Assembly: GCA_963575645.1 (NCBI GenBank)
Contig: OY754464.1
Span: 73,940,948-74,004,947, forward strand
Direction: 5' to 3'
Origin: Xanthostigma xanthostigma
Lineage: Eukaryota; Arthropoda; Insecta; Raphidioptera; Raphidiidae
Length of the DNA: 64,000 nt
The position numbers and the translations under genes are program-made. A model generated the notes under the pieces. It did no database searches and was not told the origin of the DNA. It saw nothing but the letters and a program-made list of their open reading frames with translations. Numbering within the stretch: the first letter of the stretch is position 1; each line of letters starts with the position of its first letter. Below, one piece after another: positions 668 to 60,770 of this stretch.

Positions 668-757
668 AAAATCTGTGATTAGCGTCTGAATAAGTACTCT
701 TCAAATGAATAAAATTATCGACCAATTTTTTCAGACTATATATTAACAAAAAATATA
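668..757. repeat. Fragment of the hammerhead-bearing inverted-repeat element (arm only)
   Basis: The sequence GATTAGCGTCTGAATAAG, then AAAATTATCGACCAATTTTT and a TATATTAACAAAAAATA run match the left arm of the elements at 11705 and 41542. The central CTGAAGA...GAAAC core is missing, so this is a truncated copy between two foldback A copies. Confidence 0.6.
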
Positions 758-774
758 AATTTTTTATTTATTTG

Positions 775-1232
775 TTGGACTAAGTCTAAACCAATTCTGA
801 AAATTTAAGGGTGGTTGCCCGATTATTTAAATAAATAAATGACTTCAAAAGTAAGCATATTAAACATTAGTTTTATGGTAAAACGGTAGATGGATGATAT
901 GTTTTCATTGATTTCTCCAAAACTAGTCGCTGGAAATTAACAAAAAACTATTTAAAATAGAGTTAAAACCTTCATAAATTATTGAAAACAAAAAAAAACC
1001 CGTTGTGCCCGACTAATTAAAAAGATTTAATATCTTTTTAATTAGTCGGGCACAACGGTTTTTTTTTGTTTTCAATAATTTATTAAGGTTTTAACTTTAA
1101 TTGAAATAGTTTTTTTTTTTAATTTCCACCGACTAGTTTTGGAGAAATCAATGAAAACATATCATCCATCTACCGAAATATAAAAAATCAAGCCTTTTAT
1201 TTAAAATTGCCTTGGTGCTCGTACCATCTTAA
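775..1232. mobile_element. Foldback element, family A, copy 1
   Basis: Long near-perfect inverted repeat. The arm from about 884 (GGTAGATGGATGATATG) to 1024 pairs with 1028-1175 (CATATCATCCATCTACC), with the centre at AAAGATTTAATATCTTTT. The right side continues to a terminus reading GCCTTGGTGCTCGTACCATC, which matches, inverted, the left terminus of copy 2 at 61782. There is no transposase. The left end is truncated relative to copy 2. The superfamily is not assignable from the sequence alone. Confidence 0.75.
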
Positions 1233-11704: not shown

Positions 11705-11936
11705 CAAATCTTTGATTAACGTCTGATTAGAACTCTTCAATAAATAAAATTATCGACCAATTTTTCAGACAATATATTAACAAAATATAATTAATACATT
11801 AACGTTTCGATCCCGATTTGGATCCATTCTGAAGAAGATCCAAATCGGGATCGAAACGTTAATGTATTAATTATATTTTGTTAATATATTGTCTGAAAAA
11901 TTGGTCGATAATTTTATTTATTGAAGTGCACTAACT
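11705..11936 (+). mobile_element. Inverted-repeat element with central hammerhead-like core, copy in Helitron 1
   Basis: A 232-bp insertion flanked by a perfect 13-bp duplication TGCACTAACTAAG (11692-11704 and 11937-11949). The arms (AAAATTATCGACCAATTTTT...AACGTTTCGATCC) pair with the right half. The centre reads CTGAAGA-A-GATCC-loop-GGATC-GAAAC. Helitron 2 has the uninterrupted sequence at this point and so supplies the empty site. The asymmetric ends (CAAATCTTTGATTAACG on the left only) and the long duplication argue for retrotransposition, perhaps of a Penelope-like element, rather than for a cut-and-paste MITE. Confidence 0.7.
11825..11864 (+). ncRNA. Hammerhead-ribozyme-like core
   Basis: CATT (helix I), CTGAAGA (11829-11835, matches CUGANGA), stem II GATCC/GGATC (11837-11841 with 11848-11852, five perfect pairs), GAAAC (11853-11857), GTT as the NUH site, then AATG, which pairs with CATT. 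All invariant core residues are present. Helix III would be the minimal ACGT. Activity is inference. Confidence 0.6.
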
Positions 11937-20492: not shown

Positions 20493-22477
20493 TTTAGAAT
20501 AGAATAGAATAGAATATATATTTATTCAATTGGCCTTACAGCATAGAATATGTCAATACATGTAAAATTAAAATTAAAATATAAAAAAAAAACAAAACAA
20601 TTAAAATACAGTATTTAAAAATAATTAATCATTTAGATATTCTTGGGTCGTGTAGTACGCTTTTTGTATTAATATTTGTTTAAATTTTTTTTCAAAAGTT
20701 TTTATTGGTAATTTTTTAATACCATCTGGTATTTTATTGTATATCTTTATTACTTGAAAAGTCACGCTTCTCTGTATAAGACTCAGTTTAGTGTGTATAT
20801 TTGTCATTTGTCTTTTTCCTCTGGTATTGTGTGGATGGTTACCTTCAAGTTGTTCAAAATCTTTATAGTTTTTTTTTACATATACGGCACATTCTAATAT
20901 ATACATTGACGCCAAGGTAAGTATCTTATTTTCTTTAAATATTTTTTTGCAGGTGTTTCTTTGTTTTATATTGAATATAATTCTAATACATTTTTTTTGT
21001 AGGATGAACATTTTATTTACGTCCGTGGAGTTTCCCCAGAAGATTATTCCATATCGCATTCTCGAGTATACGTAGGCATAGTATGCATTCAGACAGGTTT
21101 GTATGTCAACCGTTTGTGTAAGTATTCGGAGTGCAAATATATAGCAGCTTATTTTATTGCAGGTTTCTTCAATGTGCCTTTTCCAATTTAGATGTTGATC
21201 CAATACTAGTCCAAGGAATTTTGTGGAGTTATCTGTGGTAAGTTTATTCATATTCCAGCTCATCGTTAGTCTGTCTTCTTTATTGCATGAAAAAAGAAGT
21301 ACTTGTGTTTTGTTTATATTTAGCTTCATGTTGTGAGCTTTAAACCATTGTTCTAGTTTGCTTAGGACATTTATTATTTCATTCTGTAATGACACAATAG
21401 AGAGTTCTCTGATAATTAGTGATGTATCATCTGCAAATAACGTGACTTTGTTTTTTGTGATATTTGGCAATTCATTTGTGTAGGTCACAAATAGCAAAGG
21501 TCCTAACGTGCTTCCTTGCGGAACTCCAGTGTGTACATCTTCCCAGTCTGAACATAAGCTACCTCCCTCTTTGTCTGTAGTCTTAATGCATTGTTTCCTA
21601 TGACTCAAATATGATTTGAAAAGATCAAGTGGTATTCCTCTCACACCATAACTCTCTAATTTAGCCAATAGTATATCTATATCCACGCAGTCAAAAGCCT
21701 TCGATAAGTCTACAAAAAGCCCGCCAACCTTTTCGCCTCTATTTATGCCTTCCAGTACTTCTTCTAACATCTGATATACGGCTGTATTTGTCGATCTGTT
21801 TTTAATAAACCCATTCTGGTTGTGTGTTATAATGTCATTTGCCTGGAAGAAGCTGTATAGTCTGATATGTATAATTTTTTCTATAATTTTAGATATATTT
21901 GATAATAAAGCTATGGGTCTATAATTTTCCGATATTTTTTTGTCACCTTTTTTATAAACCGGCGTTATGGTAGCAATTTTTAGCTTATCAGGGAAAATTC
22001 CATATTGGATGCATGAATTTATTATAATTGTCATGGGTTCAGCTATACTTTGGGCGCAATATTTTAGTAGCTTCGTGGGGATATCGTCATGGCCAGTGGA
22101 CGATGTATTTTTTAGTGACATAATTTCTTTGTAGACTTCATATCGATCTGTTGGATATAAATATAAGCATTTGTTTATGTTTTTTGTTGATACGTCATAA
22201 TATGTAGTTTTATTCAAGTTTTGTCCAACATTAGCGAAAAAAATATTCAAATTATTTATAACATCTTCCTTACTTTGGGTACCAGTCTTCAGGTTTTCCC
22301 AATTGAATGTTTTTTTTTGTTTTTTAGTTCCCAGTGTGTTGTTCACTATATCCCAGGTTGCCTTAGTTCTGTTATGTGCATTGCTTATGTATTTAGATGA
22401 TGCCTCTTGTTTTGCCTCCTTTACTTCTCTTTTTAGGTCTGTACATATCCGCTTGTAATTTGCATCGTGTTCTAAGA
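20493..22477 (-). mobile_element. 5'-truncated non-LTR retrotransposon (LINE)
   Basis: Inserted in the tandem-repeat element: host sequence resumes exactly at AACCCAAACTAATATAAAGC. The 3' end on the minus strand is a (TTCTA)n tail (about 20494-20515). It is 5'-truncated within ORF2, before or at the end of the endonuclease region. The reading frame is open throughout, so it is the youngest large insertion in the window. Confidence 0.85.
20625..22472 (-). CDS. LINE ORF2 reverse transcriptase (partial, no stop)
   Basis: The frame is open from the truncation point (first residues FLEHDANYKRICTDL) to a stop at 20625; there is no true start codon because the 5' part is missing. Counting from position 22346: NYRPIALLSN at 141-150 (RT block 2), FVDLSKAFD at 211-219 with the first catalytic Asp, GVPQGSTLGPLLF at 274-286, and FADDT at 304-308 with the catalytic Asp pair. 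The C-terminal third has a thumb and a connection-like region with QKKCIRII, and HNTRGK. RT uses the element RNA to make cDNA at a nicked target. All catalytic residues are present, but the endonuclease domain and ORF1 are missing, so it cannot move itself. It resembles CR1/jockey-superfamily elements; clade uncertain. Confidence 0.85.
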   Translation of the reverse strand, partial: EHDANYKRICTDLKREVKEAKQEASSKYISNAHNRTKATWDIVNNTLGTKKQKKTFNWENLKTGTQSKEDVINNLNIFFANVGQNLNKTTYYDVSTKNINKCLYLYPTDRYEVYKEIMSLKNTSSTGHDDIPTKLLKYCAQSIAEPMTIIINSCIQYGIFPDKLKIATITPVYKKGDKKISENYRPIALLSNISKIIEKIIHIRLYSFFQANDIITHNQNGFIKNRSTNTAVYQMLEEVLEGINRGEKVGGLFVDLSKAFDCVDIDILLAKLESYGVRGIPLDLFKSYLSHRKQCIKTTDKEGGSLCSDWEDVHTGVPQGSTLGPLLFVTYTNELPNITKNKVTLFADDTSLIIRELSIVSLQNEIINVLSKLEQWFKAHNMKLNINKTQVLLFSCNKEDRLTMSWNMNKLTTDNSTKFLGLVLDQHLNWKRHIEETCNKISCYIFALRILTQTVDIQTCLNAYYAYVYSRMRYGIIFWGNSTDVNKMFILQKKCIRIIFNIKQRNTCKKIFKENKILTLASMYILECAVYVKKNYKDFEQLEGNHPHNTRGKRQMTNIHTKLSLIQRSVTFQVIKIYNKIPDGIKKLPIKTFEKKFKQILIQKAYYTTQEYLND

Positions 22478-22674
22478 ACCCAAACTAATATAAAGCGTTT
22501 AAAAAAGTATAAATACTGCTTTTTAACGACAAAAACTTTTGAAGGGTAACTCCGATCATTATGAAGTTTGGACACAACATTCATCTCGGTAAACTAAGAT
22601 TAATGTGCGTACTCATGTCCCTTTCTTCGCCATTCGTTCTTTTGCACCCGAGTGAAACCGGACGGGACCGCTAG

Positions 22675-35124: not shown

Positions 35125-35680
35125 TCAGAGTGCCCGTCAGCAAAAATTTTACTGACACATACTCTCCTCAAACTTTGTATATGGCTTCATTAGGCCTAGT
35201 CTGACACCTATTTCCACTATGACTTTTATTGATTTTGGGGCGTTTTCCCTCTAAATTTTCCGAAAGATGTCGTTTTGACATGTAAAAATTTATAGATACT
35301 GTTTGTTTTTTTTAATTGGATAGCTTTAAAACTTCAATCAAAACGCTAAAATAATGTTCTCTGACAAATAACATGAACCATTTAAAATGTCTGACACCTC
35401 GAATATGTTCGACATATTCGAGGTGTTAGACATTCATGTTATTTGTCAGAGAAGATTATTTTAGCGTTTTAGTTGAAGTTTTTAAGCTATCCAATTAAAA
35501 AACAAGCAGTATAAACTTTTACATGTTGTCAAAACGGCATCTTTCGGAAAATTTAGAGGGAAAACGTCCCAAAATCAAGAAAAGTCATAGAGGAAATAGG
35601 TGTCAGACTAGGCCTAATGAAGCCAGGTGTCAGACATTTTAAACGGTTCATGTTATTTGTCACAGAATGTGATCAAATTG
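35125..35680. mobile_element. Foldback family D, copy 1 (rearranged)
   Basis: The left terminus GTCAGAGTGCCCGTCAGC leads into CATTAGGCCTAGTCTGACAC. The arms pair through CGTTTTCCCTCTAAATTTTC, GATAGCTTTAAAACTTCAAT and AATGTCTGACACCTCGAATA to a centre at GTTCGACATATTCGA. After GGCCTAATGAAGCC the expected right terminus is replaced by a further copy of the central segment (GGTGTCAGACATTTTAAAC). Copy 2 at 59930 keeps the right terminus. Confidence 0.75.
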
Positions 35681-37652: not shown

Positions 37653-37661
37653 TTATTTATA

Positions 37662-38142
37662 CAGGGTGAGTTTTAAGTTGATGCTTTTTTTACAGCGTGT
37701 AAAAATCAAATAGACGAGCAAATATTTCAAATAGTTTTTTTTACCAAAACTCAAAAATAAGGGAGAAACAGCCTTTCAAAGTTTAAATAAATTTTATTAA
37801 ATTTTCTTTAATTTTGAGGTCGGTCCTGGGGTTATATTATGTCACTATGGAAATATGTTATTATTATCAAGTAGGTATTAACAGAAATAATTAAGGCACA
37901 CACAATTCTCTCAAAAACAGAACAATACACATACTTGATAATAACAACTTATTTCCATAGTGACATAATATAACCCCAGGACCGACCTCAAAATTAAAGA
38001 AAATTTAATAAAATTTATTTAAACTTCGAAAGGCTGTTTCTCTCTTATTTTTGAGTTTTGATAAAAAAACTATTTGAAATATTTGCTCGTCTATTTGATT
38101 TTTACACGCTGTAAAAAAAAGCATCAACTTAAAACTCACCTG
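37662..38142. mobile_element. Foldback element E
   Basis: Ends CAGGGTGAGTTTTAAGTTGA and TCAACTTAAAACTCACCTG with TATA on both sides (37658-37661 and 38143-38146). The arms of about 210 bp pair almost perfectly, through AATAGACGAGCAAATATTTC and GAGGTCGGTCCTGGGGTTAT, around a spacer of about 60 bp. The minus frame at 38005-38298 runs out of it and is not supported. Confidence 0.8.
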
Positions 38143-38146
38143 TATA

Positions 38147-41049: not shown

Positions 41050-41541
41050 TAATAATAATAATAATAATAATGTCTTTATTGATGAAAAAAACAGTTTTAT
41101 CAAAAGGCGTGAATTCAGCTTAAAGTTGGTTTTAATGGCGGGTTTAAAAAAAAAACAACGATTAAATTGTGATTTTGTCGTTGAAAATCGTTAAAAAAAT
41201 AGAAATAATTTTTATAATTAAGTAATTCTAGTACCGGACGAAGCTATTGTTGTGTAGAATACCCTGTGCAAAATTGAAAGCAATCGGTTGTATACAATTG
41301 TTTCAATCACCCGCGCCACTTACAAAAACGTAGTTTTGAGAAAAACGCATTTAAAGTTTTGATTTCAGATTTCTTTAAAAAAAAATAAAAATTAATATTT
41401 ACACTAATTGCAGCTATGCCTGGTGTATAGTAAACCTTCCGTTTCTTCAAAGACATCGTTTTCTGCTAATTTTTTTGCTATGCTCTGCGAGAGTATAAGG
41501 GTTACGTGATAACAATTGAGAGGTAAGAGCAGGTAAGAGTC

Positions 41542-41817
41542 AAATCTTTGATTAACGTCTGAATAGAACTCTTCAAGTAAATAAAATTGTCGACCAATTT
41601 TTCTCAGACCAAACGATATATTGACAAAAAATGATAAAAATACAAATCAATATAACATACTAATTAGGTAATTTTTATATTTTTTAGATATTTCTGAAGA
41701 AGATCCAAATCCGGATCGAAACGTCATCTTGTGTTATATTGATTTGCATTTTTATCATTTTTTGTCAATATATCGTTTGGTCTGAGAAAAATTGGTCGAC
41801 AATTTTATTTACTTGAA
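41542..41817 (+). mobile_element. Inverted-repeat element with central hammerhead-like core, copy 2
   Basis: A 276-bp insertion with perfect 13-bp duplication GCAGGTAAGAGTC (41529-41541 and 41818-41830); the paralogous site at 49280-49310 is empty. Left end AAATCTTTGATTAACGTCTG; arms ATTGTCGACCAATTTTT...AAAATTGGTCGACAAT and ATGATAAAAATACAAATCAA with its complement. Same family as 11705 and 57412. Confidence 0.75.
41686..41735 (+). ncRNA. Hammerhead-ribozyme-like core
   Basis: CTGAAGA (41694-41700), stem II GATCC (41702-41706) with GGATC (41713-41717), GAAAC (41718-41722), then GTC as cleavage triplet (after C41725) and ATCT, which can pair with AGAT upstream (with a bulge). Every core residue of the CUGANGA...GAAA...NUH consensus is present. 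Helix III is minimal ACGT. Confidence 0.6.
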
Positions 41818-41996
41818 GCAGGTAAGAGTCTTACCGTAAGACCGTTGCTGCTCTCGACTATATGCTATAGCTTTGTAAATATTTAATATTTCGGTCTAAA
41901 ATTTTTACAGTATTTTCTCAATATATTATACTTACTAAAAATGTAAAAAAAATAAATTCAATTTTCCGAAACTCGAACACCAGACTACGTCCTTAA

Positions 41997-46689: not shown

Positions 46690-46905
46690 GAAGTAATTTT
46701 CGCTAATTATTATGTATCATATAATTTGTATGTAAATTAAAAGAAAATTTTATTTATACTAAAATATGATTATTAAACAAAAATTAATCGTATAATTTGC
46801 AACTCTAAAAAAAAAATAACATTTGTTGCGCATCTGCCGGGAATCGAACCCGGGCCACCCGCATGGCAGATGGGTATTCTACCACTGAACCATTGAAATT
46901 GTTTA
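46690..46905 (-). mobile_element. tRNA-Gly(GCC)-headed SINE, copy 2
   Basis: The minus head (about 46829-46900) is TGGTTCAGTGGTAGAATACC, anticodon GCC in CATCTGCCATGCG, and GGTTCGATTCCC. The T and anticodon arms are intact but the acceptor (ATTTCAA with CAGATGC) is unpaired. The tail GCAACAAATGTTATTTTTTT, AGAGTTGCAAATTA aligns with 18386-18577. Confidence 0.65.
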
Positions 46906-48622: not shown

Positions 48623-49473
48623 GGACGTAGTCCTTTGTTCAGGCTCGAGTTCAACCCTTATTTCAGAATTTTTTTGTAATAACAAAATAATGTACAATCA
48701 TTTCAATTTCGTTACATGTTTTTACTGACATCGTAAACTAAGAAAAAATGTTTTTTTTTGCTTAAGTTTACGCCATTTTATAATTGTTTTTTTAACCTAA
48801 AGTAGACAACTTTAAATGGAGGTAGGTGGGTAGAGCGGGTGATAACGTCTCTTGGAGTCATCTGAATTATAAAAATTAAATTGGTTATTGTTTCGTACTA
48901 GAAATAAACATTTTTATTGGTAAATAACAAAATGGCGGGTTTAAAAAAAAACAACGAGAAAATCGTGATTATGTCGTTGAAAATCGGTTAAAAAAATAGA
49001 AATAATTTTTATAATTAAATAATTCTAGTACCGGACGGAGCTATTGTTGTGTAGAAATATCCTGTGCAAAATTGAAAGCAATCGGTTGTATACAATTGTT
49101 CCAATCACCCGCGCCGCTTACAAAAACGTAGTTTTGAGAAAAACGTGTTCAAAGTTTTGATTTCAGATTTCTTACAAAAAAATAAAAATGAATATTTACA
49201 CTAATCAGCTATGCCTGGTGTATAGTAAACCTTCCGTTTCTTCAAAGGCATCGTTTTCTGTATAAGGGTAACGTAATAACAATTGAGAGGTAAGAGCAGA
49301 TAAGAGTCTTACCGTAAGATCGTTGCTGCTCTCGACTATAATATGCTATAGCTTTGTAAATATTTAATATTTCGGTCTAAAATTTTTACAGTATTTTCTC
49401 AATATATTATACTTACTAAAAATGTAAAGAAAATAAATTCGTTTTTCCGAAACCCGAACAACAGACTACGTTC
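48623..49473. mobile_element. Harbinger-like element, second family, copy 2 (uninterrupted)
   Basis: An 851-bp element. Ends GGACGTAGTC and GACTACGTTC, with TAA at 48620-48622 and 49474-49476. It supplies the empty sites for the two insertions in the copy at 40271. Contains GGTGATAACGTCTCTTGG and GTACCGGACGGAGC motifs common to both copies. No transposase. Confidence 0.75.
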
Positions 49474-57385: not shown

Positions 57386-57504
57386 CGGCTATATCTCTGT
57401 AGCGCTAAATTGAAGAAATTTTTAATAAATAAAATTATCGACCAATTTTTCAGACAAATATATTAACAAAAAATATATAACTTCAATACAATAACGTTTC
57501 GGTC

Positions 57505-57545
57505 TGGATTTGAATCTTCTTCAGATCTGATCTAAAATATATAAA
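57505..57545 (-). ncRNA. Hammerhead-like core, minus strand, degenerate stem II
   Basis: Minus strand: CTGAAGA, AGATTCAAATCCAGACC, GAAACGTT. The core is intact, but stem II (GATTC against AGACC) pairs poorly. Confidence 0.45.
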
Positions 57546-57699
57546 AATTAATTAATAATTAGTTTTTAATAAAACTCGCTAAAGTTTTTTATTATCGAAA
57601 TATTGAAAAAATAATAACAATTTCAATATTTCCATATAATGAAAAAACTTTGGCGAATTATATTAAAAACTAATTATTAATTAGTTTTTATATATTTTA

Positions 57700-57745
57700 G
57701 ATCAGTTCTGAAGACGGTCCAAATCCGTACCGAAACGTTATTGTT
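57700..57745 (+). ncRNA. Hammerhead-like core, plus strand
   Basis: CTGAAGA, C, GGTCC-AAATCC-GTACC, GAAACGTT. The core is intact and stem II has four of five pairs. Confidence 0.5.
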
Positions 57746-57860
57746 TTGAATTTATATACTATTATATAAATATTTTTTGTTAATATATTTGTCTGAAAAA
57801 TTGGTCGATAATTTTATTTATTGAAGAGTTCTAATCAGACGTTAATCAAAGATTTTAAGA

Positions 57861-60334: not shown

Positions 60335-60770
60335 ATTATGAGTTGGGATTTTTCGGAGTTTTTACTTTATTTTGTCAGAGTGCCAATCTAGAGACCCCGT
60401 TTTCAAGGTCACTGATCACGATGGTGACGGTCCCACAATTTTTTTTCCTCTTCAAATTGACCCCCCTGATTTCCATCCCTTTGAAAAAAATTATAAAAAA
60501 ATTCGAACACAATAATTTTGTAGGAAAATTAATTCTCTACAAAAAACTAACTTGTGTTTTTTACTGTAAATGTGATACTTTAAGAATTACAGGCCTTCAA
60601 AGATGATCATTTATAGAAATTTCCATAAATTTAATGTTCATCTTTGAAGGCCTGTAATTCTAAAAGTATCACATTTACTGTAAAAAAAAGAAAGATTTTT
60701 TGTAGAGAATTAATTTTCCTATAAAACTGTTGTATTCAAAATTTTTTATAATTTTTTTGTACAAAAAAAT
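60335..60770. mobile_element. Foldback family C2, complete palindrome
   Basis: The arm 60490-60606 (TAGGAAAATTAATTCTCTAC, GTAAATGTGATACTTTAAGA, GGCCTTCAAAGATGA) pairs with 60642-60765. It directly follows foldback D copy 2. The left flank (CCCCGTTTTCAAGGTCACTG) is shared with 14090-14330. Confidence 0.75.

What the first reader, a model, noticed from the sequence alone, without database searches (positions are those of the whole stretch)
41542..41817. Inverted-repeat retroelement with a complete hammerhead-like core and a 13-bp target duplication
The element's centre reads CTGAAGA, a five-pair stem II (GATCC/GGATC), GAAAC and a GTC cleavage triplet, all consensus residues of the hammerhead core. 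It is flanked by a perfect 13-bp duplication, and the paralogous Harbinger-like copy at 48623 shows the empty site. Known: hammerheads with minimal helix III occur in Penelope-like elements. Inference: this is a very short non-autonomous Penelope-type or retrozyme-like element in which the two arms are an inverted copy of each other, so transcripts of both strands fold on themselves.
Basis: partly seen in the sequence, partly recalled or inferred. Interest (0 to 1): 0.8.

Follow-up and report, generated by a model that had tools for sequence, protein, structure and literature searches.

The report
Tiny head-to-head Penelope retroelement insertion
This 276-base repeat is a very short, two-armed insertion of an endonuclease-bearing Penelope-like retrotransposon that is abundant in this genome; the kind of element is known, but its many small insertions record how Penelope elements write themselves into DNA.

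Summary
Window 41542-41817 has two inverted arms (87 nt, 99%), a one-sided end of 29 nt, a flanking 14-nt direct repeat, and a paralogue with the empty site at 49295-49308. The class guess (Penelope) is right: the same hammerhead core, arm and tail follow an 822-codon frame with RT and GIY-YIG segments (L100). The tail has 17,523 near-exact places in this 623-Mb genome, reversed control 0. It is not a retrozyme-like family but a 5'-truncated, head-to-head PLE insertion. 64 of 91 sampled tail copies have their own target duplication; of 59 compared, one pair shares a centre. The tail-less arm is longer in 21, the tail arm in 20; a second tail in 0 (copies drawn by tail or similarity). That favours two reverse transcriptions per insertion, one per target strand, over self-priming; this step is inferred. 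The hammerhead is the minimal PLE form: conserved core, no helix III, one extra nucleotide before stem II, no Rfam match. Architecture known; a large natural data set for an open mechanism.

The parts
41528..41541 (.). left copy of the target-site duplication AGCAGGTAAGAGTC
   Evidence: empty site
41542..41570 (-). one-sided PLE 'tail' (29 nt), reads AGTTCTATTCAGACGTTAATCAAAGATTT on the minus strand; by analogy the stretch between the two RT start sites
   Evidence: 17,523 places in own genome; follows the arm in L100 3209-3237; meaning of the tail from PMC11167929
41571..41657 (-). tail-bearing pLTR arm, 5'-truncated before the hammerhead
41658..41693 (+). upstream leader belonging to the longer, tail-less arm
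   Evidence: one search leaves 11 nt at the junction unassigned
41694..41725 (+). minimal hammerhead core: CTGAAGA, extra A, stem II GATCC/GGATC, GAAAC, GTC; predicted cleavage after 41725
   Evidence: conservation across copies; no Rfam match
41732..41818 (+). tail-less pLTR arm (inverted copy of 41571-41657)
41817..41830 (.). right copy of the target-site duplication
49295..49308 (.). empty site in the paralogous host repeat
11705..11927 (+). second insertion of the same PLE, own 13-bp duplication TGCACTAACTAAG; one complete core (+) and, in the other arm, stem II with GAAAC but without CTGAAGA
57414..57855 (-). third insertion with longer arms; no target duplication recovered
669..759 (+). 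tail plus arm fragment of the same family

Best explanation
The element is a 5'-truncated insertion of an autonomous, GIY-YIG-endonuclease-bearing Penelope-like element (PLE). Two antisense cDNAs of its pLTR stand head to head between a 13-14 bp target duplication. Most likely steps: (1) PLE RNA ending in pLTR, hammerhead and the tail region is bound by the RT-endonuclease [binding known from a relative; linkage of the ORF to these ends shown here]; (2) the two target strands are cut with a stagger of about 13 nt [duplication and empty site shown]; (3) one target strand primes reverse transcription at the far start site, leaving the tail, and the other primes at the near start site, leaving no tail [one tail per insertion shown in the sample; priming inferred]; (4) both cDNAs stop early and their ends are joined at the centre, often with a few shared bases [junctions shown; process inferred]. 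The hammerhead is carried along as part of the pLTR and does not usually fix the cDNA ends. Identity about 0.95; the two-strand step about 0.6.
For: PLE ORF with RT piece (PF00078, 8.5e-7, 29.3 bits against a cut-off of 29.6) and GIY-YIG piece (PF01541, 24.0 bits, cut-off 22.6) followed by the same hammerhead, arm and tail; a second such linkage in L031. 150 scored matches (first look 2896 candidates) of the endonuclease end in this genome. TSD score >=8 in 64 of 79 tail copies with an inverted arm (91 tail copies in all); partners shuffled: 0.26%. Of 59 TSD copies that could be compared: no-tail arm longer 21, tail arm longer 20, alignment of the arms runs through the centre (near-symmetric) 16, unclear 2; second tail 0 of 59. 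The window element itself has the longer tail-less arm. Arms of one copy agree at the diagnostic sites read in 28 of 33, but L032 and L035 have arms differing at several sites within one target duplication, as if from two templates. Published: a PLE protein cuts and extends both strands, RT starts at two internal sites, the tail lies between them (PMC11167929, main text).
Against: Near-symmetric centres (16 of 59) seem to me more frequent than two independent stops would give and fit self-priming as well. L042 and L045, at different sites with different duplications, share the same centre: either a recurrent junction or copying of an inverted unit. The differences in L032 and L035 sit only in the outer 65 or so nt, the inner 100 or more nt being identical, so conversion or mosaic sources are possible. 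Own arm is not usually the strictly nearest arm (8 nearest, 10 tied, 15 farther of 33). 12 of 91 tail copies had no detectable inverted arm, and 15 of 79 with an arm had no duplication at score 8. The whole ORF gave no Pfam hit at E<=0.01 and no NCBIfam hit at E<=1; domains appear only when pieces are scanned.
Confidence: 0.75

Rival explanations
1. Self-priming: one cDNA folds back on itself and copies its own strand, giving the inverted arms (the published suggestion for rotifer Penelope elements, there on an antisense template).
For: PMC3846280 discussion proposes it from palindromic junctions; 16 of 59 centres here are near-symmetric, and 20 of 59 have the tail arm longer.
Against: In 21 of 59 copies, the window element included, the tail-less arm is the longer; a fold-back copy of a tail-less cDNA cannot contain the tail, and a fold-back copy of the tail arm cannot exceed it. 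L032 and L035 arms look like two templates.
Confidence: 0.2
2. A separate non-autonomous family (retrozyme-like or MITE-like) whose inverted form is itself transcribed and copied as a unit.
For: Very high copy number, no ORF inside the element, strong hairpin; L042 and L045 share one centre at two sites.
Against: Of all pairs among 59 copies only L042/L045 match closely across the centre, and five other pairs loosely with different letters at the junction; ORF-bearing copies have the same 3' end. Metazoan retrozymes are tandem repeats with canonical type I hammerheads (PMC7229834 passages).
Confidence: 0.07
3. A DNA transposon (MITE) with terminal inverted repeats.
For: Inverted arms and a target duplication.
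Against: One end carries an extra 29 nt, duplication length varies (9-17 as scored), arms are truncated variably from the centre, and the same ends follow RT and endonuclease.
Confidence: 0.01

Closest known systems
Endonuclease-bearing Penelope elements of Adineta vaga (Pen2a and others, PMC3846280; passages and discussion seen)
   Same: Head-to-head inverted pLTRs, a 31-bp tail optionally on one of them, 8-10 bp TSDs in the three inserts for which I saw a length
   Different: There a low copy number is stressed; here 17,523 tail places, and the 29 TSD copies of the positional sample are 67-764 bp long, median 237, TSD mode 13-14
PAc, the Poseidon/Penelope element of the green anole (PMC11167929; main text seen)
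   Same: Tail equals the stretch between two internal RT starts; hammerhead with stems I and II and no stem III listed; both target strands cut and extended in vitro
   Different: There the ORF begins within the hammerhead and tandem arrays are described; here the hammerhead lies between the ORF stop and the tail of the copy seen (L100), and activity is untested
Metazoan non-LTR retrozymes (PMC7229834; passages seen)
   Same: Small, ORF-less, hammerhead-bearing repeats with TSDs when present
   Different: Tandem not inverted, canonical type I hammerhead, circular RNA; PLEs are named there as a strong candidate for mobilising them

Membership tests
Endonuclease-bearing Penelope-like element | ORF with RT and C-terminal GIY-YIG linked to the same ends | tested here: met
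   L100 and, for the endonuclease end only, L031; RVT_1 0.3 bits under its cut-off, GIY-YIG over its cut-off
Endonuclease-bearing Penelope-like element | Optional 30-40 nt tail on one arm | tested here: met
   29 nt or a base or two more; second tail 0 of 59, copies drawn by tail or similarity
Endonuclease-bearing Penelope-like element | Inverted or partial-tandem pLTRs | tested here: met
   58 head-to-head pairs against 10 other neighbouring arm pairs (5 minus-minus, 3 plus-minus, 2 plus-plus) in fetched DNA
Endonuclease-bearing Penelope-like element | Target duplication of variable length | tested here: met
   64 of 79, 9-17 nt as scored, mode 13-14
Endonuclease-bearing Penelope-like element | Place in the RT tree | not tested
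   no tree built
Hammerhead ribozyme | Conserved core residues and stem II | tested here: met
   present; most core positions >0.9 over 64 instances against 0.5-0.7 at many flanking positions, instances chosen by similarity to the core; one extra nucleotide before stem II relative to the canonical core (canonical form recalled)
Hammerhead ribozyme | Match to an Rfam hammerhead model | tested here: not met
   none at E<=10 in the window stretches scanned or in 10 loci
Hammerhead ribozyme | Helices I and III | tested here: not met
   no helix III; helix I one adjacent pair in this copy, four in copy B (read); predicted fold puts CTGAAGA into another hairpin in two of three stretches folded
Hammerhead ribozyme | Self-cleavage | not testable with these tools
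   bench assay needed
Metazoan retrozyme | Tandem units with canonical type I hammerhead | tested here: not met
   inverted arms, minimal hammerhead
Metazoan retrozyme | Circular RNA | not testable with these tools
   no RNA data

The most novel reading that the evidence does not exclude
Every insertion of this PLE is a paired event: two RNA templates are reverse-transcribed on the two target strands, one obligatorily from the tail start site and one from the tail-less site, so a dimeric complex with fixed division of labour makes head-to-head pairs, and full-length elements are rare survivors of early termination.
Probability: 0.4. Interest if true: 0.65.

Novelty: new member of a known kind. 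Interest (0 to 1): 0.45.

Why it matters
How Penelope-like elements integrate, and why their copies are so often inverted with one tail, is unsettled: one published suggestion is self-priming (PMC3846280), while a later in-vitro study saw both target strands cut and extended (PMC11167929). This genome holds 17,523 near-exact tail places; in the sample many copies are short enough to show both ends, both cDNA stops and the target duplication within a few hundred bases. A full census could separate self-priming from two-strand priming without a bench experiment. It also shows that a hammerhead inside a short inverted repeat need not mark a retrozyme.

Tried and rejected
Rfam: on the element only miRNA-precursor, CRISPR-repeat, bacterial small-RNA and similar matches below their gathering scores, the miRNA ones reflecting the long hairpin. 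Hammerhead cleavage as the source of cDNA 5' ends: 5 of 108 arm ends lie within 4 nt of the cleavage point, 3 of them exactly, two of these being the two arms of L083 where the reference fits poorly; about what random stops would give by my estimate, so rejected as the general rule. Same-RNA test by nearest arm: arms match their own partner far better than shuffled partners (mean 3.0 against a lowest shuffled mean of 8.2, n = 33; with another anchor own mean 1.6 against 7.7 for others, n = 32), but this shows a common source, not one molecule. A second tail in L007 flagged is a loose-match artefact: its right flank starts with the target duplication. Viral contigs: no exact core match and no relative of the ORF. 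Papers: five answered full-text searches; in the titles and abstract starts listed I saw nothing on short inverted PLE insertions as a mechanistic data set; the 2014 paper on hammerheads in PLEs is not held and is known only as cited.

Rows dropped: one search left out seven copies without an anchor (L046, L047, L048, L054, L061, L062, L086) and the 12 of 91 without an arm; L046-L095 come from 50 of the first 55 places listed, five places (three with a close neighbour among them) being left out when I wrote the request. L079 holds three tail copies, hence 52 copies in 50 loci. The set called 'similar' holds L001-L045, a second copy in L018 and window copy B. Long foreign insertions inside L072, L074, L082, L089 and L090 make their arm classes less certain.

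Full report
Observation. The stretch 41542-41817 is as described: inverted arms of 87 nt at 99%, a hammerhead-like core, a one-sided end, and a perfect 14-nt direct repeat outside. A paralogous host repeat at 49.1-49.5 kb carries the word once, in register, with one mismatch. As RNA the stretch folds at -136 kcal/mol against a shuffled mean of -43.

Other copies in the window. The same family is present at 11705-11927 (own 13-bp duplication), 57414-57855 (no duplication recovered) and, as a fragment, 669-759. The one-sided end occurs four times in the window with up to three mismatches; the shuffles gave none.

The genome. The window lies in a 623-Mb assembly of 28 contigs. The end AAATCTTTGATTAACGTCTGA with at most one mismatch has 17,523 places, the core 11,034 (two mismatches), the arm end 28,763 (one mismatch); the reversed control patterns have none. 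Among the 100 core places listed (all exact, all on C1) I read 11 neighbouring pairs within 1.2 kb as minus-plus (head to head), none as plus-minus, and one as plus-plus.

What the family is. L031 keeps a longer arm whose upstream part encodes the C-terminal end of a GIY-YIG-like protein; alone that 90-residue piece has no Pfam hit over its cut-off. It has 150 scored matches in the genome, with open frames up to 822 codons. At one of them, L100, the 822-codon frame carries an RT segment (PF00078, just under its cut-off) and a GIY-YIG segment (PF01541, over its cut-off) when pieces are scanned; the whole protein gave no Pfam hit at E<=0.01, none in NCBIfam, and only weak matches to retron and group II intron RTs among solved structures (best 0.016, besides an unrelated neck protein at 0.01). 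About 180 bases after the stop comes the same core, then the same arm, then the tail. So the window element has the 3' end of an endonuclease-bearing Penelope-like element at both its ends and no coding part.

Structure of the copies. I oriented 91 distinct tail copies. 79 have an inverted, tail-less arm downstream; 64 of these have a target duplication at score 8 or more, against 0.26% when flanks are shuffled among copies; length 9-17 as scored, mode 13-14. In the sample taken by position (L046-L095, 52 tail copies) 43 have an arm and 29 a duplication; these 29 are 67-764 bp long, median 237. The base before the tail is C in 67 of 91 and the one before it T in 72 of 91, so the start site may lie a base or two outside the 29-nt tail.

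Arms. For 59 copies with a duplication and an anchor, the tail-less arm is longer in 21, the tail arm in 20, 16 are near-symmetric and 2 unclear; by sample 9, 7, 6, 2 of 24 (positional) and 12, 13, 10, 0 of 35 (similar to the window element). No second tail in 59. A looser scan of all fetched DNA found 58 head-to-head pairs; of the 57 not at an edge 54 have one tail, 2 none and 1 two, the last being an artefact in L007. Nearly all these copies were found through a tail or by similarity, so the rate of tail-less insertions is not known. For 54 copies the arms were laid on references: 24 centres have 0-7 shared bases, 5 more than 7, 6 have 1-5 unassigned bases and 19 more than 10, some of the last because no reference spans them or another element sits inside.

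Shared centres. Comparing 28 nt across the junction among the 59 copies gave six pairs within three edits both ways. L042 and L045 share the same centre at two sites with different duplications; the other five pairs differ in letters at the junction. So independent formation is the rule in this sample, with one case that could be a recurrent junction or a copied unit.

Templates. Partner arms are alike: 28 of 33 copies agree at all diagnostic sites that could be read. Exceptions: L032 and L035 have arms of differing type within a single target duplication; L042, L045 and L060 differ at one site or a length run. The differences in L032 and L035 lie in the outer part only. Two templates explain this best; conversion is not excluded.

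Mechanism. A fold-back copy of the tail arm cannot be longer than the tail arm, and a fold-back copy of a tail-less cDNA cannot gain a tail. So self-priming, proposed in PMC3846280 (discussion read), does not cover the 21 copies with a longer tail-less arm, the window element among them. Two priming events, one per target strand and one per start site, cover all three arm classes. PMC11167929 (main text read) reports for the anole element both-strand cutting and extension, two adjacent internal RT starts and the tail between them, with no difference in start site between strands in vitro; a strict division of start sites between strands is therefore my inference from the genomic copies. PMC3846280 already says that the tail is optionally present at one of the inverted pLTRs (passage).

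The hammerhead. The core is conserved across subfamilies (most positions above 0.9 of 64 instances; position 17 is C 43, T 18, A 3, G 0; stem II pair 2 is AT 45, GT 9, AC 5, GC 5), while many flanking positions are at 0.5-0.7; instances were chosen by similarity to the core, which inflates this. Relative to the canonical core as I recall it there is one extra A before stem II; a strict scan found 0 canonical and 2 one-extra forms in the window. Helix III is absent, as reviewed for PLE hammerheads (PMC6155905 passage). The local fold prefers a hairpin that hides CTGAAGA in the window copy and in L100, not in the shorter stretch of copy B (all three z-scores weaker than -1.3). That would fit the protein-dependent cleavage reported for the anole element. 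Few arm ends coincide with the cleavage point (5 of 108 within 4 nt).

Verdict. A new family of a known kind, in unusual numbers and short copies, useful as a natural record of PLE integration. The host species was not identified.

Noticed in passing
L100 (C7:27762900-27766300), 1-408 and 590-997: A long PLE copy is itself head to head, with the centre inside the N-terminal part of the ORF (99.8% arms); the same architecture on a larger scale.
   Followed up: partly
L042 and L045, centres: Two insertions at different sites share one inverted centre: recurrent junction or unit copying.
   Followed up: partly
window 41682-41735 and L100 3072-3135: A predicted alternative hairpin (UUUUUAGAU..UUCUGAAGA) pairs the first strand of the hammerhead core; it could be a protein-binding or regulatory fold.
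   Followed up: no
window 20625-22484 (-): 619-codon open frame that reads like a LINE reverse transcriptase (FADD motif), not classified.
   Followed up: no
window 46837-46892 (-): tRNA match above the Rfam gathering score (36.5 bits) covering model positions 8-63 of 71 only, perhaps a SINE head.
   Followed up: no
window 884-1175, 35182-35625, 37658-38146, 60484-60758: Several other long self-inverted repeats in the same window, not identified.
   Followed up: no
L081: Short insertion whose centre reads like PLE endonuclease-end sequence joined to very short arms, as if one cDNA started or jumped far upstream.
   Followed up: no
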